From: Trichuris trichiura
Lineage: Eukaryota > Nematoda > Enoplea > Trichinellida > Trichuridae
DNA: 64,000 nucleotides
Assembly: GCA_037903355.1 (NCBI GenBank)
Contig: JBAJFE010000045.1
Location: 620,001 to 684,000, forward strand
Reading direction: 5' to 3'
Shown here: piece by piece, positions 1,400 to 60,661 of the stretch
Position numbering within the stretch: the first letter of the stretch is position 1
Layout of the letters: every line of letters starts with the position of its first letter
Notes under the pieces: model-generated
Seen by the model: the letters and a program-made list of their open reading frames with translations, nothing else
What the model was told of the DNA's origin: nothing
The model's database searches: none
Translations under genes and position numbers: made by a program

Positions 1400-3766
1400 A
1401 TGGTCAGGTCTTGCACAGCTGATGGGTCCATGCCAACACCATTTTTAGAAGAACGATGTCACTTCATTATCAGTGCGTGAAGTAAAACGAAACCGCACAC
1501 TCTCATGAAGACCTAGAAAAAAATGCTCAACGTCTAACGCATTGGATGACACAGAAAACGAATAGCTACGCTCCAATGATAAACATGAAGGTCGTCATCA
1601 ACCTTTCCTACGCGTAGCCATTATGATTTGCTGAACCCTTTCAGTATTTTTTGTGGATTCTGCTTTGCTTCATTGTTTTTTATGCAACATTTTCATAAGC
1701 TTGAAGGTTGAACCACCTTGGTAACAGTAACTTGTTTCCACAATGTCCGTTAGAGCATTTGTTGTTCTTTCGTGGGTACGAAGTAAAACCAAAAGTTCTC
1801 AGCCGTACGCTAACGAATAGATGGAGCTTTCAGGGCTGACCTTTTCCTAACCGACAGGATGTCTCCTGGAGAAAGTCAACTTTGAAAATTTCTGTTTATC
1901 CATCTGTGCACAATATAGAGGTTCTACTTTTTACTCCAGTTAGACAAAACAACAAGAAAATCCGCTACAAAGATCACATTTAGGCATGCTTGTTCATCAA
2001 TCTTTTTTGTACTTCTTGCATCATAGACGGGACCAAACAACACTTAAGGCTACTGAGGAAACGTCGTTTCTTGTAGCCTCATGCAAAGCATATAAGAACT
2101 GGCAATATGAAAACCACTTAAAGAGTTACCAGGTGGAAAGAAGTAAACGTCATCTGCCCATTAGACGTTTTCACGATCCAAGTACATTAACCTGTCTGAA
2201 CACTGTGCTAAGTTCCGTCCTGCGAAACACAGTGGCACGAAGCCATAAATCTCAAATTCTGTACAAAAGCGAAATCTTAGCTACCAGCATGCCCGTTATT
2301 TATTAAACAGAAAAGATATAGGCAAAAATATTCATCATTTAGACAAAGCCAGCAGCTTAAACTCAGCCACTCAGTTAATTCCAATCTGGCAGGATAGTGA
2401 AATCATGCTTCCTTAAATTTCCAGGGGTTACTACCCGTCTTCTGGGGTAATATATGCCGTAAATAGAGTATAAAACGCCCACTTACGCAATCGCTAAGAT
2501 AACCACCACGCGCATGGAACTGGACGCAGCGCAGAAACTTGGTCGTCAATTATAAACCATGTTTACCAGGCATCGTTTGAAAACTCGACTGCCGTCGCAA
2601 CGTCTCATCTCTATACGTCACAAAGGAAAACTTGCTGAACTATTCATTTTACGGATCCAGAATTCCCTGAACCCCACCGCCCATTGAGCACTAACAGACT
2701 GCCTAAGGGCATATGAAATTAGCTGCCTGAACTTTCTAAAGGCAAAATCAGAATCATTAATACTTCTCACGCACAGTAAGCCGAGGAACAGGCAGTGGGA
2801 ACAATGAGAAAACGTTTCAGTCAACCACAGACGCTTCAATCTCTTCATTTACCAAGCTACTCCGGTCGTTGTGCACATAGACTCCACAAGGCTGTGTATT
2901 CCTAGTTTCGCTGACAGAAAAACTACGTTCGGTCGCATAAGCAGCGTCAGGGTGATGGGCGATTAGCATTCTAAGCCTCTTATCTTTAGGAAACGATCAC
3001 AGGTTGTGTGAACCATCAAAAACATATTACAAAATTAACAACGGTTTAAGTAATCATCGGATTGTTTCACTAAAACCATCGCCAAGCGGCAATACAAGCA
3101 GAAGCTTCGTAAACGAAAGTTCAAATGTGGGTAAATATGCCAGATGAACTCGTCAAGTAACTGCGCGGCTGATGAGCATGACCAACTAACCATTGCAGAG
3201 GAATGCGTACTGAAAGTTCAGCATGCGCCCGCAAAACAGACTAAATTATACCGCAAACATTCACTTGCGCAGATGCAGTATCATCTCTCTGAAGTCGCTT
3301 TGGCAACCATGGTAAACCTGAACGAAGGACTCAGCTATCACCACAGATAACATATTACTGAAAAATCCACTGAAACACCAGTAGCTCCGTACCGCTTTTA
3401 CTTTGAATATCAATTTAAAAAACTCCAAAGTCACATGCCAACTAAACCTGGCACGAAACTACAAGCCCCACAAGCTTTTACCTTCTCAAGCAAGAAAGAG
3501 CACATGCCTTCATTAACTAACAGACCAGCACAGTTACTGGCTGTTTGCTGAGCCTACGCGAAAACCTCAAGACGAAGCAAGAACAGGAGCGTGGATAAAA
3601 ACAAAATCAACTAAGCCGCAAATTAAACATCGAAAACTTAACATTACGAAACCATAACACAATAAACCCACCACCTGAATAAACGAAGATCATACTATAA
3701 AAATGGAAACATCGAAAAGCACAACCATCATTGCTGGGCAGAAAACAGCCAAGCAAACGAAGGAAA
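1400..3766. other. intergenic, nothing recognised
   Basis: Only short open frames with no recognisable domain (for example 1986-2306) and no convincing exon boundaries in sequence. It must contain the promoter of the WAP gene that starts at 3767, but no TATA-like element is distinctive enough to name. Confidence 0.5.
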
Positions 3767-6700
3767 ATGACAGCTCCAAGCCCGCTGCTGATAGGATTGG
3801 CCATATGCCTCCTACAACGTGTACAAGGTAAGAACATAAAACTCCTTACAGTTAAAACAAGTCACAACTTGAAAATACCAGATGCGGAAAGCGCCAAAAT
3901 AGGTCGCTGTCCTTCGCCACCATTCGGCGCAGGAAGAGCTAGGTTTTGTTACACTGACAGACAATGCCCTGGACGCATGAAATGCTGCCTAACAAAACGG
4001 GGCTACGCTTGCACAGCACCGGATATCTCCTACCCAGGTAACCAAAACTCGTCCACAGAATAGCTAAAGAACTCTGTCCATGAAAACTTCTGAACAAACC
4101 AAACCGAATTCAAGGACCACCAAAACCAACATGGAACAACGCAAAATGCGATGAACACGGCGTTTGTTCAAAAACAATAGCACAGCGAAAAGAATATATC
4201 TAACCGACAACCATTCACCATAACCCGCTTATTTCAGACGCAGACAAACAAAAGCCAGGCACATGTCCACCTTCCAACATGTTTACCGGAACCGCACCAT
4301 TCTGCAACAGCGACAGTGACTGCAAGGGCACAGAAAAATGTTGCCTCACAAAAGCAGGACATCAATGCGTACAGCCAAATCAAACACGTATGAGATCACT
4401 GGCATACTCTGAATATTTTCATGGATAATTCCCATTTCAGCAAGACCAATTGCCAAAAAAGGATCATGTCCACCTAAACCAATCGGTGGTGTAGGATTAG
4501 AGAATTTTTGCCAAAACGATTATGACTGCGGTGGTTCTATGAAATGCTGTTTAACGAACGTTGGATACGACTGCAAAGCACCAGTAGAGGAGAGTATGAC
4601 GAATAATTCTTTCCCAGCGTTAGAACAGCGTTTATACAGCTAACCTATAGGTGAAGAAGTTAACAAACCGGGAATATGCCCAGTCGCGCCAGCAGTATAT
4701 ACAGGAGTATTCCTCTGCCAAAGCGACAAAGATTGCGAAGGTGCAAAAAAATGTTGTTTCACTGCGAAAGCAAAGGAATGCGTACAGCCGGAGGAAGAAC
4801 GTATGACATCATTGGCACAGTAGGAATATTTTGATGGATAATTTTGGTTTTAGTTACACCGTTCGGCAAAAAAGGATCATGTCCACCTAAACCAAACGGA
4901 GCTGTAGGACTAGCTAGTTTCTGCCAGAACGATTATGATTGCGACGGTTCCAAGAAATGCTGTCTAACAAGTATTGGATATGATTGCAAAGCTCCAGTAG
5001 AGGAGAGTATGATGATAAATTCATTCTATCTGATAGAACTGCGTTTATACAGCTAACCTATAGGTGAAGAAGTTAACAAACCGGGAATATGCCCAGTGGC
5101 GCCAGCAGTATATACAGGAGTATTCCTCTGCCAAAGCGACAAAGATTGCGAAGGAGCAAAAAAATGTTGTTTCACTGCGAATGCAAAGGAATGCGTAAAG
5201 CCGGAGGAAGAACGTATGACATCATTGGCACACTAGGAATATTTTCATGGACAATTTTGGTTTTAGTTAAACCATTCGGCAAAAAAGGATCATGTCCACC
5301 TAAACCAAACGGAGCTGTAGGACTAGCTAGTTTCTGCCAAAACGATTATGACTGCGACGGTTCCAAGAAATGCTGTCTAACAAGTGTTGGATATGATTGC
5401 AAAGCTCCAGTAGAGGAGAGTATGATGATAAATTCATTCTATCTGATAGAACTGCGTTTATACAACTAACCTATAGGTGAAGAAGTTAACAAACCGGGAA
5501 TATGCCCAGTGGCGCCAGCAGTATATACAGGAGTATTCCTCTGCCAAAGCGACAAAGATTGCGAAGGAGCAAAAAATGTTGTTTCACTGCGAAAGCAAAG
5601 GAATGCGTAAAGCCGGAGGAAGAACGTATGACATCGTTGGCACACTAGGAATATTTTCATGGACAATTTTGGTTTTAGTTAAACCATTCGGCAAAAAAGG
5701 ATCATGTCCACCTAAACCAATCGGAGCTGTAGGACTAGCTAGTTTCTGCCAAAACGATTATGACTGCGACGGTTCCAAGAAATGCTGTCTAACAAGTGTT
5801 GGATATGATTGCAAAGCTCCAGTAGAGGAGAGTATGATGATAAATTCATTCTATCTGATAGAACTGCGTTTATACAACTAACCTATAGGTGAAGAAGTTA
5901 ACAAACCGGGAATATGCCCAGTGGCGCCAGCAGTATATACAGGAGTATTCCTCTGCCAAAGCGACAAAGATTGCGAGGGAGCAAAGAAATGTTGTTTCAC
6001 TGCGAATGCAAAGGAATGCGTAAAGCCGGAGGAAGAACGTATGACATCATTGGCACACTAGGAATATTTTCATGGATAATTTTGGTTTTAGTTAAACCAT
6101 TCGGCAAAAAAGGATCATGTCCACCTAAACCAAACGGAGCTGTAGGACTAGCTAGTTTCTGCCAAAACGATTATGACTGCGACGGTTCCAAGAAATGCTG
6201 TCTAACAAGTGTTGGATATGATTGCAAAGCTCCAGTAGAGGAGAGTATGATGATAAATTCATTCTATCTGATAGAACTGCGTTTATACAACTAACCTATA
6301 GGTGAAGAAGTTAACAAACCGGGAATATGCCCAGTGGCGCCAGCAGTATATACAGGAGTATTCCTCTGCCAAAGCGACAAAGATTGCGAAGGAGCAAAAA
6401 AATGTTGTTTCACTGCGAATGCAAAGGAATGCGTAAAGCCGGAGGAAGAACGTATGACATCATTGGCACACTAGGAATATTTTCATGGATAATTTTGGTT
6501 TTAGTTAAACCATTCGGCAAAAAAGGATCATGTCCACCTAAACCAATCGGAGCTGTAGGACTAGCTAGTTTCTGCCAAAACGATTATGACTGCGACGGTT
6601 CCAAGAAATGCTGTCTAACAAGTGTTGGATATGATTGCAAAGCTCCAGTAGAGGAGAGTATGATGATAAATTCATTCTATCTGATAGAACTGCGTTTATA

Positions 6701-9700
6701 CAACTAACCTATAGGTGAAGAAGTTAACAAACCGGGAATATGCCCAGTGGCGCCAGCAGTATATACAGGAGTATTCCTCTGCCAAAGCGACAAAGATTGC
6801 GAAGGAGCAAAAAAATGTTGTTTCACTGCGAAAGCAAAGGAATGCGTAAAGCCGGAGGAAGAACGTATGACATCGTTGGCACACTAGGAATATTTTCATG
6901 GACAATTTTGGTTTTAGTTAAACCATTCGGCAAAAAAGGATCATGTCCACCTAAACCAAACGGAGCTGTAGGACTAGCTAGTTTCTGCCAAAACGATTAT
7001 GACTGCGACGGTTCCAAGAAATGCTGTCTAACAAGTGTTGGATATGATTGCAAAGCACCAGTAGAGGAGAGTATGATGATAAATTCATTCTATCTGATAG
7101 AACTGCGTTTATACAACTAACCTATAGGTGAAGAAGTTAACAAACCGGGAATATGCCCAGTGGCGCCAGCAGTATATACAGGAGTATTCCTCTGCCAAAG
7201 CGACAAAGATTGCGAGGGAGCAAAGAAATGTTGTTTCACTGCGAAAGCAAAGGAATGCGTAAAGCCGGAGGAAGAACGTATGACATCGTTGGCACACTAG
7301 GAATATTTTCATGGACAATTTTGGTTTTAGTTAAACCATTCGGCAAGAAAGGATCATGTCCACCTAAACCAAACGGAGCTGTAGGACTAGCTAGTTTCTG
7401 CCAAAACGATTATGACTGCGACGGTTCCAAGAAATGCTGTCTAACAAGTATTGGATATGATTGCAAAGCTCCAGTAGAGGAGAGTATGATGATAAATTCA
7501 TTCTATCTGATAGAACTGCGTTTATACAGCTAACCTATAGGTGAAGAAGTTAACAAACCGGGAATATGCCCAGTGGCGCCAGCAGTATATACAGGAGTAT
7601 TCCTCTGCCAAAGCGACAAAGATTGCGAAGGAGCAAAAAAATGTTGTTTCACTGCGAAAGCAAAGGAATGCGTAAAGCCGGAGGAAGAACGTATGACATC
7701 ATTGGCACAGTAGGAATATTTTCATGGATAATTTTGGTTTTAGTTAAACCATTCGGCAAAAAAGGATCATGTCCACCTAAACCAATCGGAGCTGTAGGAC
7801 TAGCTAGCTTCTGCCAAAACGATTATGACTGCGACGGTTCCAAGAAATGCTGTCTAACAAGTGTTGGATATGATTGCAAAGCTCCAGTAGAGGAGAGTAT
7901 GATGATAAATTCATTCTATCTGATAGAACTGCGTTTATACAACTAACCTATAGGTGAAGAAGTTAACAAACCGGGAATATGCCCAGTGGCGCCAGCAGTA
8001 TATACAGGAGTATTCCTCTGCCAAAGCGACAAAGATTGCGAAGGAGCAAAAAAATGTTGTTTCACTGCGAAAGCAAAGGAATGCGTAAAGCCGGAGGAAG
8101 AACGTATGACATCGTTGGCACACTAGGAATATTTTCATGGACAATTTTGGTTTTAGTTAAACCATTCGGCAAAAAAGGATCATGTCCACCTAAACCAAAC
8201 GGAGCTGTAGGACTAGCTAGTTTCTGCCAAAACGATTATGACTGCGACGGTTCCAAGAAATGCTGTCTAACAAGTGTTGGATATGATTGCAAAGCACCAG
8301 TAGAGGAGAGTATGATGATAAATTCATTCTATCTGATAGAACTGCGTTTATACAACTAACCTATAGGTGAAGAAGTTAACAAACCGGGAATATGCCCAGT
8401 GGCGCCAGCAGTATATACAGGAGTATTCCTCTGCCAAAGCGACAAAGATTGCGAGGGAGCAAAGAAATGTTGTTTCACTGCGAAAGCAAAGGAATGCGTA
8501 AAGCCGGAGGAAGAACGTATGACATCGTTGGCACACTAGGAGTATTTTCATGGACAATTTTGGTTTTAGTTAAACCATTCGGCAAGAAAGGATCATGTCC
8601 ACCTAAACCAAACGGAGCTGTAGGACTAGCTAGTTTCTGCCAAAACGATTATGACTGCGACGGTTCCAAGAAATGCTGTCTAACAAGTGTTGGATATGAT
8701 TGCAAAGCTCCAGTAGAGGAGAGTATGATGATAAATTCATTCTATCTGATAGAACTGCGTTTATACAACTAACCTATAGGTGAAGAAGTTAACAAACCGG
8801 GAATATGCCCAGTGGCGCCAGCAGTATATACAGGAGTATTCCTCTGTCAAAGCGACAAAGATTGCGAAGGAGCAAAAAAATGTTGTTTCACTGCGAATGC
8901 AAAGGAATGCGTAAAGCCGGAGGAAGAACGTATGACATCATTGGCACAGTAGGAATATTTTCATGGACAATTTTGGTTTTAGTTAAACCATTCGGCAAAA
9001 AAGGATCATGTCCACCTAAACCAATCGGAGCTGTAGGACTAGCTAGGTTCTGCCAAAACGATTATGACTGCGACGGTTCCAAGAAATGTTGTCTAACAAG
9101 TGTTGGATATGATTGCAAAGCACCAGTAGAGGAGAGTATGATGATAAATTCATTCTATCTGATAGAACTGCGTTTATACAACTAACCTATAGGTGAAGAA
9201 GTTAACAAACCGGGAATATGCCCAGTGGCGCCAGCAGTATATACAGGAGTATTCCTCTGCCAAAGTGACAAAGATTGCGAAGGAGCAAAAAAATGTTGTT
9301 TCACTGCGAAAGCAAAGGAATGCGTAAAGCCGGAGGAAGAACGTATGACATCATTGGCACACTAGGAATATTTTCATGGATAATTTTGGTTTTAGTTAAA
9401 CCATTCGGCAAAAAAGGATCATGTCCACCTAAACCAATCGGAGCTGTAGGACTAGCTAGTTTCTGCCAAAACGATTATGACTGCGACGGTTCCAAGAAAT
9501 GCTGTCTAACAAGTGTTGGATATGATTGCAAGGCTCCAGTAGAGGAGAGTATGATGATAAATTCATTCTATCTGATAGAACTGCGTTTATACAACTAACC
9601 TATAGGTGAAGAAGTTAACAAACCGGGAATATGCCCAGTGGCGCCAGCAGTATATACAGGAGTATTCCTCTGCCAAAGCGACAAAGATTGCGAAGGAGCA

Positions 9701-12023
9701 AAAAAATGTTGTTTCACTGCGAAAGCAAAGGAATGCGTAAAGCCGGAGGAAGAACGTATGACATCGTTGGCACAGTAGGAATATTTTCATGGACAATTTT
9801 GGTTTTAGTTAAACCATTCGGCAAAAAAGGATCATGTCCACCTAAACCAAACGGAGCTGTAGGACTAGCTAGTTTCTGCCAAAACGATTATGACTGCGAC
9901 GGTTCCAAGAAATGCTGTCTAACAAGTGTTGGATATGATTGCAAAGCACCAGTAGAGGAGAGTATGATGATAAATTCATTCTATCTGATAGAACTGCGTT
10001 TATACAACTAACCTATAGGTGAAGAAGTTAACAAACCGGGAATATGCCCAGTGGCGCCAGCAGTATATACAGGAGTATTCCTCTGCCAAAGCGACAAAGA
10101 TTGCGAGGGAGCAAAGAAATGTTGTTTCACTGCGAAAGCAAAGGAATGCGTAAAGCCGGAGGAAGAACGTATGACATCATTGGCACACTAGGAATATTTT
10201 CATGGACAATTTTGGTTTTAGTTAAACCATTCGGCAAAAAAGGATCATGTCCACCTAAACCAAACGGAGCTGTAGGACTAGCTAGTTTCTGCCAAAACGA
10301 TTATGACTGCGACGGTTCCAAGAAATGTTGTCTAACAAGTGTTGGATATGATTGCAAAGCACCAGTAGAGGAGAGTATGATGATAAATTCATTCTATCTG
10401 ATAGAACTGCGTTTATACAACTAACCTATAGGTGAAGAAGTTAACAAACCGGGAATATGCCCAGTGGCGCCAGCAGTATATACAGGAGTATTCCTCTGCC
10501 AAAGCGACAAGGATTGCGAGGGAGCAAAGAAATGTTGTTTCACTGCGAATGCAAAGGAATGCGTAAAGCCGGAGGAAGAACGTATGACATCATTGGCACA
10601 CTAGGAATATTTTCATGGACAATTTTGGTTTTAGTTAAACCATTCGGCAAAAAAGGATCATGTCCACCTAAACCTAACGGAGCTGTAGGACTAGCTAGTT
10701 TCTGCCAAAACGATTATGACTGCGACGGTTCCAAGAAATGCTGTCTAACAAGTGTTGGATATGATTGCAAAGCACCAGTAGAGGAGAGTATGATGATAAA
10801 TTCATTCTATCTGATAGAACTGCGTTTATACAACTAACCTATAGGTGTAGAAGTTAACAAACCGGGAATATGCCCAGTGGCGCCAGCAGTATATACAGGA
10901 GTATTCCTCTGCCAAAGCGACAAAGATTGCGAAGGAGCAAAAAAATGTTGTTTCACTGCGAAAGCAAAGGAATGCGTAAAGCCGGAGGAAGAACGTATGA
11001 CATCGTTGGCACACTAGGAATATTTTCATGGACAATTTTGGTTTTAGTTAAACCATTCGGCAAAAAAGGATCATGTCCACCTAAACCAAACGGAGCTGTA
11101 GGACTAGCTAGTTTCTGCCAAAACGATTATGACTGCGACGGTTCTAAGAAATGCTGTCTAACAAGTATTGGATACGATTGCAAAGCACCAGTACAAGAAA
11201 GTATGACAATAAGTCCAATCCATCCGATAGAACTGCGCTTATACAAAGATCCTATAGGTGGAGAAGTTCAAAAACCTGGATCATGTCCAGCGGCACCAGC
11301 AATCACGGGAAAAGCACTGTTCTGCCGAAATGACAATGATTGCGATGGTAGAGAAAAATGTTGTTCCACCAAAGTTGGCAAGGAATGTGTACAGCCAGTC
11401 CGATGGCGTATGTTTTCGCTTAGGCGCTGCAAATAAGTTTTCGAGATTGGCTGAATTTCAGCAGGACCAAATGCGAAGCCTGGGTCGTGTCCTCCTTCTC
11501 CTGTTGGAGCCGTAGGGTTAGCTTCGTTCTGCCAAAGGGACTTTGATTGTATGGGGTACCAGAAATGCTGTATTACGACTGCCGGATATGAGTGCACGCA
11601 TCCAGTGGATGAGAGTAAGGGAACTATTGGAACGCTGTTATGGGTATGAGTAATGGTAGGGTTGTAGATGTGAGACTGAGCAAGCGTGGAATTTGTCCGC
11701 GGCCGTCGTCTGTTCAGGGTCCTGTTCGTCTCTGTAATATTGATGATGATTGTGAAGGATCACAAAGGTGTTGCCCCACGAAGGCAGGCAATGGTTGCAT
11801 TAATCCTGTTAGTGAAGGTAGGGATATTGTTTCTTTGTGATTATCTTGGACGTTCTGCTACATCTTTGTAGAGATGGCAAGTGGACGAGCTTCGTGTCCA
11901 CCTGTTGCCTACGTGATGGGGTTGCCAGGTTCTTGTCGAAGGGATGAGGATTGCGACGATGGAAAGAAATGCTGTGAAGGTAATGATGGAAAATCGTGTT
12001 CTGTACTTGTACTGTCTAGTTGA
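3767..12023 (+). CDS. secreted poly-WAP protein, about 40 exons and 39 WAP domains
   Basis: Exon 1 (3767-3827) encodes a signal peptide (MTAPSPLLIGLAICLLQ, then RVQG). Exons 2-4 (3882-4037, 4238-4387, 4441-4593) each encode one WAP domain. Then 17 A-type exons (150 bases; starts 4651, 5064, 5477, 5889, then every 413 to 10845 and 11258) alternate with 17 B-type exons (153 bases; last 11462-11614), followed by 11668-11817 and 11872-12023 with TGA at 12021. All introns are phase 1 with GT-AG ends; total coding length is about 1,990 residues. A domains carry KPGICPVAPAVYTGVFLCQS and KKCCF; B domains carry KKGSCPPKP, FCQNDYDCDGSKKCC and GYDCKAPV. Each has six cysteines; usual WAP has eight. WAP domains are known as secreted protease inhibitors or antimicrobials, so a role at the host or cuticle interface is inferred. 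Exon 5477-5625 has a one-base deletion. The internal start at 3731 is a TTG and was not used; the ATG at 3767 precedes the signal peptide. Confidence 0.88.
4651..11257 (+). repeat. 16 tandem 413-bp units, each an A exon, intron, B exon and intron
   Basis: Unit starts are 4651, 5064, 5477 (412 bases), 5889, 6302, 6715, 7128, 7541, 7954, 8367, 8780, 9193, 9606, 10019, 10432 and 10845. Each unit is a 150-base exon, 53-base intron, 153-base exon and 57-base intron. Inner units differ by only a few bases, introns included, while the flanking WAP exons (4441, 11258 and beyond) are clearly diverged. This pattern fits repeated unequal exchange or gene conversion. Variable sites include GAAGGAGCAAAAAAATG/GAGGGAGCAAAGAAATG (silent), an N/K change in exon A, an N/I change in exon B, and intron sites ATCATTGG/ATCGTTGG and CACACT/CACAGT. 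Confidence 0.97.
5477..5625 (+). pseudogene. frameshifted WAP exon in repeat unit 3
   Basis: This A-type exon is 149 rather than 150 bases. The homopolymer before the paired cysteine codons has six A residues (from 5571) where sister exons have seven. The shifted frame hits TAA at 5608-5610. If real and spliced in, the protein would end after seven complete WAP domains. Because the flanking introns are both phase 1, skipping this exon would restore the frame. A homopolymer sequencing or assembly error is the main alternative. Confidence 0.85.
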
Positions 12024-12644: not shown

Positions 12645-12845
12645 TGATGGTCTTCAAAACTGAATGCTTCTTAACCAGTCTGGAGATCTTCATGATAGGG
12701 TCTCGTATGGTTCTGTCTTGCCCATTGTTGGTTTCTGAAATAATTAAACCAAATGCCCTACCAACCGATTGATTAGCAATTGCTAAAGAGAATTCAGAAC
12801 AATGTTTCACGTTCAGAGCTTTTCGGACCAACCTTGTCTTGTCTT
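12645..12845 (-). repeat. SINE-like copy, minus orientation
   Basis: The reverse complement contains TCGGTTGGTAGGGCATTTGG preceded by AACATTGTTCTGAATT and a gttggtccgaaaagctctgaacg-type leader. This is homologous to 13085-13235 on the plus strand and, more loosely, to the better preserved copies at 42164, 45550 and 45888. With the next copy it forms an inverted pair. The core resembles the D-arm region of a tRNA. Confidence 0.6.
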
Positions 12846-13084
12846 TAGTGATGACGGTTGGGAAGCTTTGCTTTGAGAAAAAGTTATTTAAGGGCTGGGA
12901 AGGGACGCCAGTCGGTATGGAACAACATCCGGTTTTACTAGAAACGGCTGTCTATGTCGAGCTGACCTCCGCTTTTTTGGCAGAGTTAATGGGTACGTTA
13001 TTCCAAATGAAAAGGGGCTGTTTTGTCTGTCGAAGGCGAAATTTTTTCAGAGTAAAGCTTTTACAACCATCCCTACAGAAGACG

Positions 13085-13235
13085 GGACAAGGTTGGTCCC
13101 GAAAGTTCCGAACGCATAACATTCTTCTGATTTTTCTTAATAACTGCTCATCCATCCATTGGTAGGGCGTTTGCACTGGTTATTTCGGAAGCAAAGAAAG
13201 GAGAAGACAAAAGTGTACGACAGCTCCACAATGAA
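13085..13235 (+). repeat. SINE-like copy, plus orientation
   Basis: Contains GGTTGGTCCCGAAAGTTCCG, a CTTAATAACTGCTCATCC block and CATTGGTAGGGCG. It is a diverged member of the family seen at 42164-42350, and the inverted partner of 12645-12845. Confidence 0.6.
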
Positions 13236-20570: not shown

Positions 20571-20768
20571 ATTCCCGTACCGAATTTCCGTCTACCGTTC
20601 CCGTACCGACTTTCGGTCTACCGTTCCTGTACCGACTTCCGTCTACCGTTCCGTACTGACTTTCGGTCTACCGTTCCTGCACCGTCTTTCGGTCTACCGT
20701 TCCGTACCGACTTTCGGTCTACCGTTGCCGTACCAACTTTCCGTCTTTCCGTTTACCGTTCCGTTTGT
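20571..20768 (+). repeat. minisatellite, about 8 copies of a 24-26 bp unit
   Basis: The unit is approximately CGTACCGACTTTCGGTCTAC followed by CGTTC, with variants such as ACTTCCGTCTACCGTTCCG. Copies are imperfect. It is open in one frame (20550-20894), giving a repetitive FRLPFRTDFRSTV-like peptide, but this is almost certainly a by-product of the repeat. Confidence 0.9.
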
Positions 20769-26783: not shown

Positions 26784-27992
26784 TTAATGAAAATAGATTG
26801 CGCTTTCTGATTTTTTCATTTCACGAACTTTTCGAATCGCCTTGGTCAAGTCTGCTTGTACAATTGAGTCCCTGTCATCACGAATGGCATTGTAGCCTGC
26901 TTCCGTAACAACGTTTCTCATGTCGGCACCATTTAAACCCTCGGTCATGTGCGCAATGCTTGTTAAGTCCAATGACCCGCTTTTGCTTACATTTTTTATA
27001 TGTATTTTTAAAATTTCTAAGCGTGCTTTCTGATTAGGAAGTGGAATTTCAATTTTTCTGTCCAGTCGTCCCGGACGAAGTAACGCTGGATCCAGAGCAT
27101 CAGGGCGGTTGGTCGCCATTATTACTTTCACCTTTTGCAATGAGTTGAACCCATCCATTTGATGTAACAGCTCAAGCATAGTCCTTTGAATCTCTCGGTC
27201 TGCTGAGTTGCCATGCGACCGTCTTTTGCTACCTATAGCGTCAATTTCGTCGATAAAAATTATGCAAGGCTGGTTATGCTTGGCGTATGTAAACATTTCG
27301 CGTATAACTCTGGCGCTCTGACCTATGTATTTTTCAATTATTCCGCTGCTGACTATTTTTAAAAAGTTATAGCTCAGCTGACTTGCTACTGCTTTTGCAA
27401 TCAACGTTTTACCCGTTCCTGGGGGGCCATAGAGCAATACTCCTTTGGGGGGTTTAATCCCAACGCGCTGGAATATTTCTGGCTTTGCGATTGGCATTTC
27501 GACAACTTCACGAACACTTCTGATTTGCTCTTCCAGACCACCAATCATTTCAAATGATACACCGGAAAAGTCTTGATGAGCCATCTTGTATATGTTTATA
27601 TCTACTATTTGTGGCAATACGGCCATTATTGTTAGGCTTACGCTGTCGAGCGCTACTCGAGCGTCTTTTTCAATTTTCGACTTGTCCTTCACGTTTTGAC
27701 ACCCGACCACCATATGCGTCCCACTAGTAAGTGCAACGATAACTCTTTGATCACTCAACTTGTTCATCACCTCGCCAATGAGCATAGCGTTACTGCCAGT
27801 ATAAGAAACAACTCTATCAAATTTCGTCATGCTCTCTTTGAACCACTGTATTTGCTTAGTCATACGCTTTTCTTCAAACGCAAGTCTGTCATTTTCTTTA
27901 AGACGCTTTAGAAAAAGCGAATAAGGCGACATCTTCGTCCTCTGCCATATGGTGGCACTGTTTTCGGAAGGCAAATTTTCTTGAGAATGCAT
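26784..27992 (-). CDS. PSMC6: 26S proteasome ATPase, Rpt4/PSMC6 type, intronless
   Basis: 402 residues in one exon. The order is N-terminal coiled coil (about 20-60), OB-fold segment (GEVMNKLSDQRVIVALTSGT, MVVGC), then the AAA module: Walker A GPPGTGKT, pore loop KYIG, Walker B IIFIDEID, and sensor plus arginine fingers ATNRPDALDPALLRPGRLDR. It best matches Rpt4 (FQRVGIKPPKG, SADREIQRTMLELLHQMDGF). As part of the six-ATPase ring of the 19S particle it unfolds ubiquitinated proteins. Odd points: no introns in a genome where other genes have many, Q for E in the GESARLIREMF motif, and a diverged C-terminus (SAIYFH). These suggest a retrocopy that is still open and perhaps tissue-specific. The start at 27992 gives normal family length; the next ATG is 19 codons later. 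Confidence 0.92.
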   Translation of the reverse strand: MHSQENLPSENSATIWQRTKMSPYSLFLKRLKENDRLAFEEKRMTKQIQWFKESMTKFDRVVSYTGSNAMLIGEVMNKLSDQRVIVALTSGTHMVVGCQNVKDKSKIEKDARVALDSVSLTIMAVLPQIVDINIYKMAHQDFSGVSFEMIGGLEEQIRSVREVVEMPIAKPEIFQRVGIKPPKGVLLYGPPGTGKTLIAKAVASQLSYNFLKIVSSGIIEKYIGQSARVIREMFTYAKHNQPCIIFIDEIDAIGSKRRSHGNSADREIQRTMLELLHQMDGFNSLQKVKVIMATNRPDALDPALLRPGRLDRKIEIPLPNQKARLEILKIHIKNVSKSGSLDLTSIAHMTEGLNGADMRNVVTEAGYNAIRDDRDSIVQADLTKAIRKVREMKKSESAIYFH

Positions 27993-34400: not shown

Positions 34401-37400
34401 ATATTCCAGAAAGATTCAATATTTTGAGCCGAAAAACATAACATCGCTGCTATTACCTTCCTGGCTGTTTTCAGGTTGAAAAAGCTTTTGCGCTAGGTGA
34501 CCACTTACGGTAATTTTTAAATAAACTTTCTATCACGCATTGCTTACTTCCCAGTTCTTTGTAGTCGTTCTTCATGGTCTTGCACTGCCGAAAGCACCAA
34601 GTCAACCGGTTTCCCAATTGAGCGTGGCACCGGCTAAAATGTGCAGTTTTTCGCATCACATTTTTGGGTGAATATTGTTACTGGCAAAAGGCCTTCATGC
34701 GGCTCCAGCCGACAGTTCAACGATAGTCGTCCTGCCGGTACAACGACGCACTGACTAAGGAACTCGTCTATTCCTTGGCAAAGCTCATTTCCATCTCTTG
34801 CTTTGTAACAGACTTTCGAGAATACCTGAAAGTACTGGTGGCAATGGTGGTTTCACTATTCCCGGTGAATTATGCTATTTTAGGGGAAGCTGCGAGTTTC
34901 TTGGCTCTTTTTTGATAAGAAGAAAATTAATCTTATTAGTAAAGCTCCGAGCAGTCACTTTTCGATGTGAAATTGATATGTCGATTAGTAGTTGTGCATA
35001 TACTTAGGCAGGCTTTAGTTTAGTTGCTTACCTCGTCAATAAAAAGCGTACCCATGCATCGAGCGATAGCCTCAGCTTCTTTTTCAACATGCTCCTTTGG
35101 AACCAGCAAGACGAACAGAAAGCGAAGAGGGATGGGAATCTATGAATGGTGAAGTTTAAAAATGTGCTTTACTTACTTACGTAAAATCTGCTGCAGAGTT
35201 GACTATCAAAATGAAAGATGTTTGACGTAACTCATCGATTGGAGAATTCCATAAATTATATATAGTCATACTTGTCTTCTCACTAATTAAGAAACGTATT
35301 TTCAAACTTTAACCCGCTAAGTACCTAATGTGGTTGGGTCATTTCATGTTCTAGCCATGAAAAGTCTTACTTCAAACAGATTTTTCATCATAGTCGCATT
35401 TCTTAGCCTGACAAATTGCGTAAACGGTATAGAGATGTTGTCAGGCCGTCCAATGAATACGCAAGCTCCTTCGGTGTCTTTGGCAACTTTTCTTAGCAGG
35501 TTTATCTGAGGAGACCGGATGGACGGCAGTTTTGTCTCAGATTTGTACATTGCGAGATTCTCTTCGTGAATCGGCTCGTTTGTGTTGTAGAACGATTCGT
35601 TGATGGTTAGCGATCCTATACGGTCTGTTAATGACGTCACCAATTTTTGTCAACTATTTTGCCTTGCCTTCCCTGCCGCAGCCGTATTTGCTTCCGACTA
35701 GCTGGTATTTTGGTGCCATCAATATGTCTTTGCAAGCTTTCATTTCGGCACGAGACAAACTGGCCATCTTACTCCAATTTTCCACGATCTTTTCTGAAAT
35801 ATTCAAACAGACTCTTTCATTCTACGGCTGCGTAAAGCAGTACAAGCTGCAACACTATATTTCACGAATTCCATCAAGTAGAGCTTTATGGAATTATTTT
35901 ACGTGCACCTGAAATAGGTTACTTTTCAAAATGTATTAACAAACATTTGCGTTTTAAGGAACTTTGTTTACTATTTTTCCTGAGCCACATTTTTGATATC
36001 TCAACCTTTCGTTGCTTTTTTATTTCGCAATTTTGACTTAAACCTGAAGGAAGCAGCACGCAGTCTCATTTGAGAAGCATATTTGCCCATTTCACGATTG
36101 GCCTTTGCGTAAACCCGATGCCTGGCTGTAGAACACTGTTAGTCCATAGTAATTTACCTTAACGTGGAATCGATCATGTTAAAGAAGAAAAATTGTTAAT
36201 ATTTCGTATTGGTTTAGCTGCGCAGAAAGAAAGCTTATCGTTGGTGCAACTTCGCACTAAAGGTGCTATTTTTTGTTAAAGAATTGATTGCTCGATTTCG
36301 AGTTACATTATTTGACACAGTTTTTTCATTTAGAAAGCAATGGAAATAATGATAACAGACTATTTTTAAGCTGGAAAAAACGCAAATAATGGGCGTTACC
36401 TTACATCAGCTAATTATAATATAATCGCCGTAGTATAAAGCGGGGGTATTCACTGCTCCCCAAAGGAGATTAACAACTCCTAATGGTACCACAGGCAATA
36501 ATTGGCAGCCCTACTGGTCGAATCGGTTCCAGCATTTCTTTTATGAAGTAACCTAGTGATTAAGCCAACATGTTGGTACCACAAGGATGCGGTCTTAACA
36601 CTGTAACAACTTCCTTGTAAAGATTTCAAAACAGCAATATTCACAATGCATATTCATGATATAATAGAATTTCACGGGTGAATCCAGAATAGCGGCAGGA
36701 GCTTAGTATAACCATGTAATGGACACAGGAATATAAGTTTCTAGCGCCTCAGCTAATCTATGAGACGTTCGAATGCTGTCCCATTTTGTAAAGCAGAATA
36801 GCAATGGCAATTGCCTCGATTAATTTTTAGAAAATGTGACAAAAGAAAAATTACTTTACCTGCTAGAACACTGAATTTGTCCACGTTGACGTCAAGCATA
36901 AGCTCTGCTCCCGAACGAATGCTGTTCCTCAACTGCAGCAAGCATTGCAACGTAAGCAATGTTATATGCGGTTTCGACCATCGGTTGCTTTCAGTTTCGA
37001 CCGTTTCTTCATATTTGATCCATCTTGAAACTTCCCGCCAGCACACTGCGCTGAACCTATTTTCGCTACGAATGTCGAAAAGTTTTAACATTTCGCAAAA
37101 TAACGGATGATACGCTCGCTCAGTGATCTCGCCTTCCTCGTCTTCAATAATGCTGCACAACCTGTGCACAGGACCTAAACAAAATAAACCTCTCGTTTCG
37201 CCTCCTGTCAATGTTACAACATAGCATAAAAGATTGCAAAAGGTCGTGAAAGTACTGCTGGACTTATGGAAAGAAACATTTGACGTAAAAATGGCGTACA
37301 ACATAAATGTATTAAAGCTGTTGAGAAAAGCAACGTTAATGTGCTTTGTATAGTTAGCAAATTTTTCATCATGAAGCACCATTTGAAAGCTGTTGCTCTG

Positions 37401-60598: not shown

Positions 60599-60661
<63 letters not shown>
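60599..60661. repeat. (AT)n microsatellite, about 30 repeats
   Basis: Uninterrupted alternating TA over about 60 bases, followed at 60675 by a run of ten G residues. Confidence 0.98.

What the first reader, a model, noticed from the sequence alone, without database searches (positions are those of the whole stretch)
3767..12023. A 39-domain secreted poly-WAP protein built from one-domain exons
Every internal exon is exactly one WAP domain and every intron is phase 1. The summed exon lengths give a whole number of codons only if the single deleted base at unit 3 is counted, which supports the model. Few WAP proteins reach this domain count. A secreted multivalent product of roughly 2,000 residues could act as a repetitive matrix or a multi-site inhibitor rather than a simple protease inhibitor.
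Basis: partly seen in the sequence, partly recalled or inferred. Interest (0 to 1): 0.85.

Follow-up and report, generated by a model that had tools for sequence, protein, structure and literature searches.

The report
Whipworm gene with 39 WAP domains
A whipworm gene codes for a secreted chain of 39 small disulfide-locked WAP domains, the longest of seven sister genes found in its genome; the family is already known, one domain is broken by a frameshift in this copy, and the domains lack the loop that makes ordinary WAP proteins protease inhibitors.

Summary
3767-12023 reads as one gene: a signal-peptide exon and 39 exons, each one WAP unit, all 39 introns GT-AG and phase 1. Variation is codon-like (A exons pN/pS 0.18, above 1 in shifted frames). 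Probes for the start module and the end module each match seven places in the 72.7 Mb genome, one of each per array, so each array is best read as one gene. The genome is Trichuris, close to T. trichiura.

Two corrections. Exon 8 is one base short and, as sequenced, stops the frame after seven domains; the codon sum is no independent support. And 180 of 180 intact array domains have six cysteines, lacking C2 and C7, with a C1-C3 loop shorter than elafin's. That loop makes the protease contact in elafin, so a "multi-site inhibitor" is unlikely.

This is the longest member seen of a published family (Tm-WAP, TT52, TT95: secreted, six-cysteine repeats, reported pore-forming). The core of this array has been replaced between conserved caps, probably by unequal exchange. 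Novelty: new member of a known kind.

The parts
3000..3766 (+). 5' flank shared with the five sister arrays compared (likely promoter and 5' UTR; role inferred)
   Evidence: blastn of 767-800 bp upstream of the start: 95% identical to L009, 86% L010, 82% L014, 73% L012, 73% L011. L013 was not in that comparison but shares the start module.
3767..3827 (+). exon 0: start codon and hydrophobic signal sequence MTAPSPLLIGLAICLLQRVQ, ends in phase 1 (signal peptide judged by eye and by the like start of relatives; no predictor was run)
   Evidence: start module matched at 7 places in the genome, one per array (two of the seven cover only the first 84 of 173 bases)
3882..4037 (+). exon 1: WAP domain 1 (N-terminal cap 1)
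   Evidence: 97% nt identity to the L009 cap exon
4238..4387 (+). exon 2: WAP domain 2 (N-terminal cap 2)
   Evidence: 97% nt identity to L009
4441..11200 (+). exons 3-35: alternating A (153 nt) and B (150 nt) one-WAP exons, 413-bp A+B period, introns of 57 (A to B) and 53 nt (B to A)
   Evidence: unit identity matrix
5477..5625 (+). exon 8: damaged B exon, 149 nt, frameshift and stop inside
11258..11407 (+). exon 36: WAP domain 36, last B-type exon
11462..11614 (+). exon 37: WAP domain 37 (C-terminal cap)
   Evidence: 99% nt identity to L009
11668..11817 (+). exon 38: WAP domain 38 (C-terminal cap)
   Evidence: 90% nt identity to L009
11872..12023 (+). exon 39: WAP domain 39 and stop codon (C-terminal cap)
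   Evidence: 91% nt identity to L009; end module matched at 7 places in the genome, one per array

Best explanation
It is the longest of seven sister genes found in a whipworm genome (Trichuris, T. trichiura group) for secreted poly-WAP proteins of the Tm-WAP / TT52 / TT95 kind. SHOWN: one gene model with a signal-sequence exon, two N-terminal WAP exons, a core of alternating A and B exons and three C-terminal WAP exons; coding constraint; six cysteines per intact domain with C2 and C7 missing and the C1-C3 loop shorter than elafin's; core units of this array much more alike than they are to the cores of the other arrays, while caps and 5' flank stay close to those of the nearest sister. INFERRED: symmetric phase 1-1 exons let unequal exchange add or drop domains without breaking the frame, so length is free to drift and reached 39 here. 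INFERRED: the product is a disulfide-locked chain released from the stichosome at the host epithelium, where it acts by repetition (many weak contacts with membrane, mucus or antibody) and not as a canonical serine-protease inhibitor. Pore formation in lipid bilayers is reported by others for the relatives TT52 and TT95 and is the most concrete activity on record. As sequenced, this copy breaks its frame in exon 8, so it would make a seven-domain product unless that exon is skipped or the base call is wrong.
Against: No transcript or protein data for this gene. The frame is broken in exon 8 as sequenced, and two of six sister arrays also carry one damaged WAP exon each. Loss of C2 and C7 lowers but does not exclude protease inhibition by another geometry; six-cysteine WAP domains also occur in other animals (8 of 18 cores in P0009). 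TT52 and TT95 sequences were not in hand, so kinship with them rests on the Tm-WAP comparison in PMC6130879, and another paper attaches the pore work to TT47 and TM43 (PMC3160910). Array-specific likeness of cores is not general: L010 B exons are no more alike within L010 (pS 0.20) than to L009 (0.13), L013 cores are nearly as diverse within as between arrays, and L011 and L012 A exons are alike. The lag-three signal is slight and untested. The number of units depends on the assembly. Foldseek E-values are weak (best 0.004).
Confidence: 0.6

Rival explanations
1. A multi-site SLPI-like serine-protease inhibitor: each domain blocks a host or worm protease and many domains raise local capacity.
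For: PF00095 match. P0004 is named 'SLPI-like' by its source, and Foth et al. as cited in PMC8660643 call the family SLPI-like and find it high in the anterior worm (passages). The predicted fold matches SLPI and elafin.
Against: 180 of 180 intact array domains lack C2 and C7 and have 12-14 residues between C1 and C3, where elafin has 15; in elafin the loop L20-L26 with scissile bond A24-M25 is held by the fourth disulfide (PMC10098471, passage). A limit of this argument: 12 of 180 array domains have 14 residues there, as do 22 of 117 eight-cysteine domains, so length alone is not decisive.
Confidence: 0.2
2. A gene in decay: the exon 8 frameshift is real, and the locus yields a short seven-domain product or none.
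For: Exon 8 is 149 nt with a stop inside; sister arrays L010 and L013 each have one damaged exon, the latter by an insertion with inverted repeats.
Against: 38 of 39 domain exons are intact and the A and B exons show constraint, though that signal could predate the break. Phase 1-1 exons can be skipped without loss of frame. A base-call error in a near-identical repeat cannot be excluded.
Confidence: 0.2
3. Assembly artefact in copy number: the true array is longer or shorter.
For: Units 2-16 are 96.9-99.8% identical, and within the groups 3, 6, 9 and 7, 10, 14 units differ by one to two bases in 413, the kind of repeat that assemblers miscount.
Against: No two of the 16 units are identical, so private differences order them, and sister arrays with other cores have 18-31 intact domains.
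Confidence: 0.15
4. Several separate short WAP genes in tandem.
For: ATG-started open frames of 126 aa recur in the array.
Against: The one such frame translated (5089-5469) runs out of the domain frame through a B exon, through the 53-nt intron, then through one A domain, and ends at a stop in the 57-nt intron. Start and end modules are matched once per array in 7 of 7 arrays, the start module nowhere inside an array.
Confidence: 0.03

Closest known systems
Tm-WAP (Tm-WAP49) of Trichuris muris
   Same: Signal peptide, tandem repeats of about 50 aa, six conserved cysteines, secreted from the stichosome (PMC6130879, passages)
   Different: 3-10 repeats there, 39 here; sequence not compared directly because it was not in hand
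TT52 and TT95 of T. trichiura ('porin-like' proteins)
   Same: Reported homologues of Tm-WAP (47% and 54% identity) and said to belong to a multigene family by duplication and elongation (PMC6130879, passages)
   Different: Sequences not in hand, original papers not read; pore formation not tested for this gene
T. suis predicted proteins P0001, P0002, P0003, P0006 and T. trichiura P0004
   Same: Same N-terminal caps, C-terminal caps in the T. suis ones, six-cysteine domains
   Different: 8-25 cores counted; several look like imperfect gene models; P0004 runs into unrelated sequence after its first C-terminal cap
SLPI and elafin
   Different: Eight cysteines and an inhibitory loop held by C2-C7 (pairing recalled); one or two domains
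Ptychodera flava poly-WAP protein P0024
   Same: Very long poly-WAP chain: 32 cores in 2187 aa
   Different: 32 of 32 cores have the eight-cysteine pattern; other Pfam domains present

Membership tests
WAP domain, Pfam PF00095 | Profile score above the curated cut-off | tested here: met
   14 of 14 exon translations given match at E <= 0.01, the first 39.5 bits against 20.8; all 150 places listed, window places among them, are over the cut-off
WAP domain, Pfam PF00095 | Eight cysteines, four disulfides (the 'four-disulfide core') | tested here: not met
   180 of 180 intact array domains show six; of 237 cores in the window and L009-L028, 229 show six, 8 another pattern, 0 the eight-cysteine pattern (only fetched regions were examined)
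WAP domain, Pfam PF00095 | WAP fold | tested here: met
SLPI/elafin-type antiprotease | Inhibitory loop between C1 and C3 with C2 pairing to C7 | tested here: not met
   C2 and C7 absent, loop 12-14 residues; R22-C23-A24 of elafin fall in an insertion
SLPI/elafin-type antiprotease | Measured inhibition of a serine protease | not testable with these tools
   needs an assay
Trichuris six-cysteine poly-WAP family (Tm-WAP, TT52, TT95) | Tandem repeats of about 50 aa with six cysteines behind a signal peptide | tested here: met
   (signal peptide by eye); definition from PMC6130879
Trichuris six-cysteine poly-WAP family (Tm-WAP, TT52, TT95) | Sequence kinship with Trichuris relatives, caps included | tested here: met
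   P0001-P0006, P0017 and P0018 of T. suis, T. trichiura and T. muris
Trichuris six-cysteine poly-WAP family (Tm-WAP, TT52, TT95) | Direct alignment with Tm-WAP49, TT52 or TT95 | not tested
   their sequences were not in hand
Trichuris six-cysteine poly-WAP family (Tm-WAP, TT52, TT95) | Expression in and secretion from the stichosome | not testable with these tools
   seen reported for Tm-WAP (PMC6130879)
Trichuris six-cysteine poly-WAP family (Tm-WAP, TT52, TT95) | Pore formation in lipid bilayers | not testable with these tools
   reported for TT52 and TT95 in PMC6130879; one original paper was asked for and is not held

The most novel reading that the evidence does not exclude
Whipworms have turned the WAP antiprotease into a non-inhibitory building block: by losing the C2-C7 bond and the inhibitory loop, and by putting each domain in a symmetric exon inside a homogenising array, they evolve secreted chains of freely variable length whose multivalent contact with host epithelium (membrane or mucus), not protease inhibition, is the function.
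Probability: 0.28. Interest if true: 0.62.

Novelty: new member of a known kind. Interest (0 to 1): 0.42.

Why it matters
Trichuris WAP proteins are prominent secreted antigens and vaccine candidates (PMC6130879, PMC9778506), and they have been called SLPI-like. If their domains cannot inhibit proteases, that label misleads functional work. The array also shows how repeat number in such an antigen could change without breaking the reading frame, which matters for diagnostics and for gene models that split, truncate or fuse such genes.

Tried and rejected
Rejected: several short genes in tandem (start and end modules are one per array). Rejected: that the 126-aa frames are genes; the one translated runs out of frame through a B exon and the 53-nt intron, then through one A domain to a stop in the 57-nt intron. 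Of 16 A-to-B introns of 57 nt counted in the window, 15 have an in-frame stop (the one before exon 8 was not counted). Rejected: that the codon sum supports the model. My first cysteine pattern found nothing because it was too narrow; it was corrected, which still missed exon 8 and the last exon. The exon caller missed exon 8 and the other damaged exons, and chose wrong acceptors in places (27-30 nt extensions); the window table is the one used, and those extensions were trimmed by a fixed 27 or 30 nt. The Rfam scan of the window gave no match. The terminator and AATAAA scans were uninformative (AATAAA 97 found, 16 of 100 shuffles had as many). In the fold search rows beyond the WAP proteins had E of 2 or more. 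In the cysteine count 8 of 237 cores with other patterns were kept in the total; they look like another small domain beside WAP domains. In the second count the eight-cysteine sample was taken by a pattern that requires eight cysteines, so six-cysteine domains of those animals are not in the 117. Not done: a phylogenetic tree, a tandem-domain structure, a signal-peptide predictor, any read-level check, a significance test of the lag-three signal.

Full report
WHAT IS THERE. The window lies in an unnamed 72.7 Mb genome (G000:C48:620001-684000). Exon 0 (3767-3827) gives a start codon and a hydrophobic signal sequence. Exons 1-39 follow, at 3882-4037, 4238-4387, 4441-4593, 4651-4800, 4854-5006, 5064-5213, 5267-5419, 5477-5625 (damaged), 5679-5831, 5889-6038, then on with a 413-bp period as A (153 nt) and B (150 nt) pairs up to 11048-11200 and 11258-11407, then 11462-11614, 11668-11817 and 11872-12023 with the stop codon. 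All 39 introns are GT...AG and phase 1 by the frame of the domains they join. The A-to-B introns of the core are 57 nt, the B-to-A introns 53 nt; the first intron is 54 nt and the one between exons 1 and 2 is 200 nt.

IS IT MORE THAN CHANCE. Among 17 A exons pS is 0.108 and pN 0.019 (ratio 0.18); the two shifted frames give 2.06 and 1.28. Among 16 of 17 B exons (exon 8 left out) the ratio is 0.41, against 1.29 and 1.14. Between arrays the JC-corrected ratio is 0.08-0.55. So the exons are coding and constrained. 14 of 14 exon translations given to Pfam match WAP and no other family.

THE BREAK. Exon 8 is one base shorter than its sisters and stops the frame as sequenced. Read as it stands, the product is the signal sequence, seven WAP domains and part of the eighth, about 419 residues by my count from that table. 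The summed exon length is 5972 nt, not a multiple of three; that it becomes one if the base is counted follows from the phase rule and supports nothing further. A real frameshift, a base-call error and a skipped exon cannot be told apart here. Sister arrays L010 and L013 each have one damaged exon too: L010 by loss of frame, L013 by an insertion of about 317 nt (a 577-nt gap where 260 is usual, my subtraction) with inverted repeats seen by eye.

ONE GENE PER ARRAY. A 173-nt probe of exon 0, the first intron and the start of exon 1 matches the genome at 7 places, two of them over the first 84 bases only; a 206-nt probe of the last intron and exon matches 7 places; each of the seven arrays has one of each. 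Intact domains by pattern: window 38, L009 31, L010 22, L011 18, L012 24, L013 24, L014 23, in all 180. This is the strongest evidence against separate short genes. The seven arrays are those found through a capped family search (150 of 315 candidates scored) and confirmed by the two probes.

WHICH ORGANISM. The best protein matches are T. suis and T. trichiura, with T. muris in the second search; weaker ones are other animals. P0004, named 'WAP domain containing protein, SLPI-like [Trichuris trichiura]', is 96% identical to sister array L009 over 256 aa. I therefore take the genome for T. trichiura or a near relative; the genome itself is unnamed.

HOW IT EVOLVES. Core units 2-16 of the window are 96.9-99.8% identical over 413 bp, introns included; the first is about 89%. 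Mean identity is slightly highest at a lag of three units (98.8% against 98.3-98.6% at other lags to eight; untested), and units 3, 6, 9 and 7, 10, 14 differ by one or two bases, as block duplications would leave. Against L009, the 5' flank is 95% and the five cap exons are 90-99% identical, whereas the core introns are on average 77% and 60% identical and core pS is 0.45-0.52. So in this array the caps and flank are shared parts and the core has been replaced. This is not equally so everywhere: L010 B exons are closer to those of L009 (pS 0.13) than to each other (0.20), L013 cores are nearly as diverse within as between arrays, and L011 and L012 A exons are alike. Phase 1-1 exons permit gain and loss of domains without frame damage; unequal exchange is inferred.

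HOW IT LIKELY WORKS. Tm-WAP, the best studied relative, was the commonest clone in an expression screen with serum against secretions (63 of 102), has six-cysteine repeats, lies in the stichosome and is secreted (PMC6130879, passages seen). That paper says TT52 and TT95 make pores in planar bilayers; the original papers were not read, and a T. suis paper attaches the pore work to TT47 and TM43 instead (PMC3160910, passages seen), so the pore link to WAP proteins is not clean. I commit to a secreted multivalent chain acting at the epithelium by repetition, with membrane activity as the leading concrete activity, and not to protease inhibition. All of this step is inference for the gene in hand.

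WHAT IS KNOWN. PMC9778506 (passages seen) gives 25, 20 and 10 WAP proteins in T. muris, T. trichiura and T. suis, most with 1-3 domains and two proteins with 15. My searches of the paper library listed no paper whose title or abstract start names a 39-domain WAP protein; beyond the passages cited no full texts were read. Duplication and elongation as the origin of the family were already proposed (PMC6130879).

Noticed in passing
L013 (G000:C46:38500-47500): One B exon of this sister array is split by an insertion of about 317 nt with inverted repeats, like a small DNA transposon.
   Followed up: partly
L010 (G000:C48:470500-477500): One A exon of this sister array has lost its reading frame while its neighbours are intact.
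   Followed up: partly
57-nt A-to-B introns of all seven arrays: These introns are a multiple of three; with an in-frame stop in 15 of 16 (window), 5 of 9 (L009), 0 of 8 (L010), 5 of 5 (L011), 9 of 9 (L012), 6 of 8 (L013), 1 of 9 (L014) (only introns called at exactly 57 nt). The T. trichiura model P0004 reads some of them as coding, so some may be retained or the model may be wrong.
   Followed up: partly
P0004 (T. trichiura): The annotated protein continues past its first C-terminal cap into a long stretch without WAP domains and bears other Pfam domains (PF27073, PF27046), which looks like a fused gene model.
   Followed up: no
G000:C5:457491-459305 and G000:C42:273175-281157: Poly-Kunitz runs lie in long open frames (1415 aa; and 807 aa frames), in contrast to the one-domain exons of the WAP arrays.
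   Followed up: no
window 12703-13220: Two nested imperfect inverted repeats (91 and 75 nt arms) just downstream of the gene, like a decayed foldback element.
   Followed up: no
window 20572-20746 and 60600-60660: A 26-bp tandem repeat of about seven copies and an AT dinucleotide run of 30 copies.
   Followed up: no
window 26784-27992 and 36753-37382, minus strand: Neighbours: an AAA ATPase open frame with a proteasomal ATPase OB domain, and an open frame with a band 3 cytoplasmic domain.
   Followed up: no
P0025 (Soboliphyme baturini): A 1309-aa WAP protein of another nematode in which 13 of 17 cores also have six cysteines, hinting that the loss is older than Trichuris.
   Followed up: no
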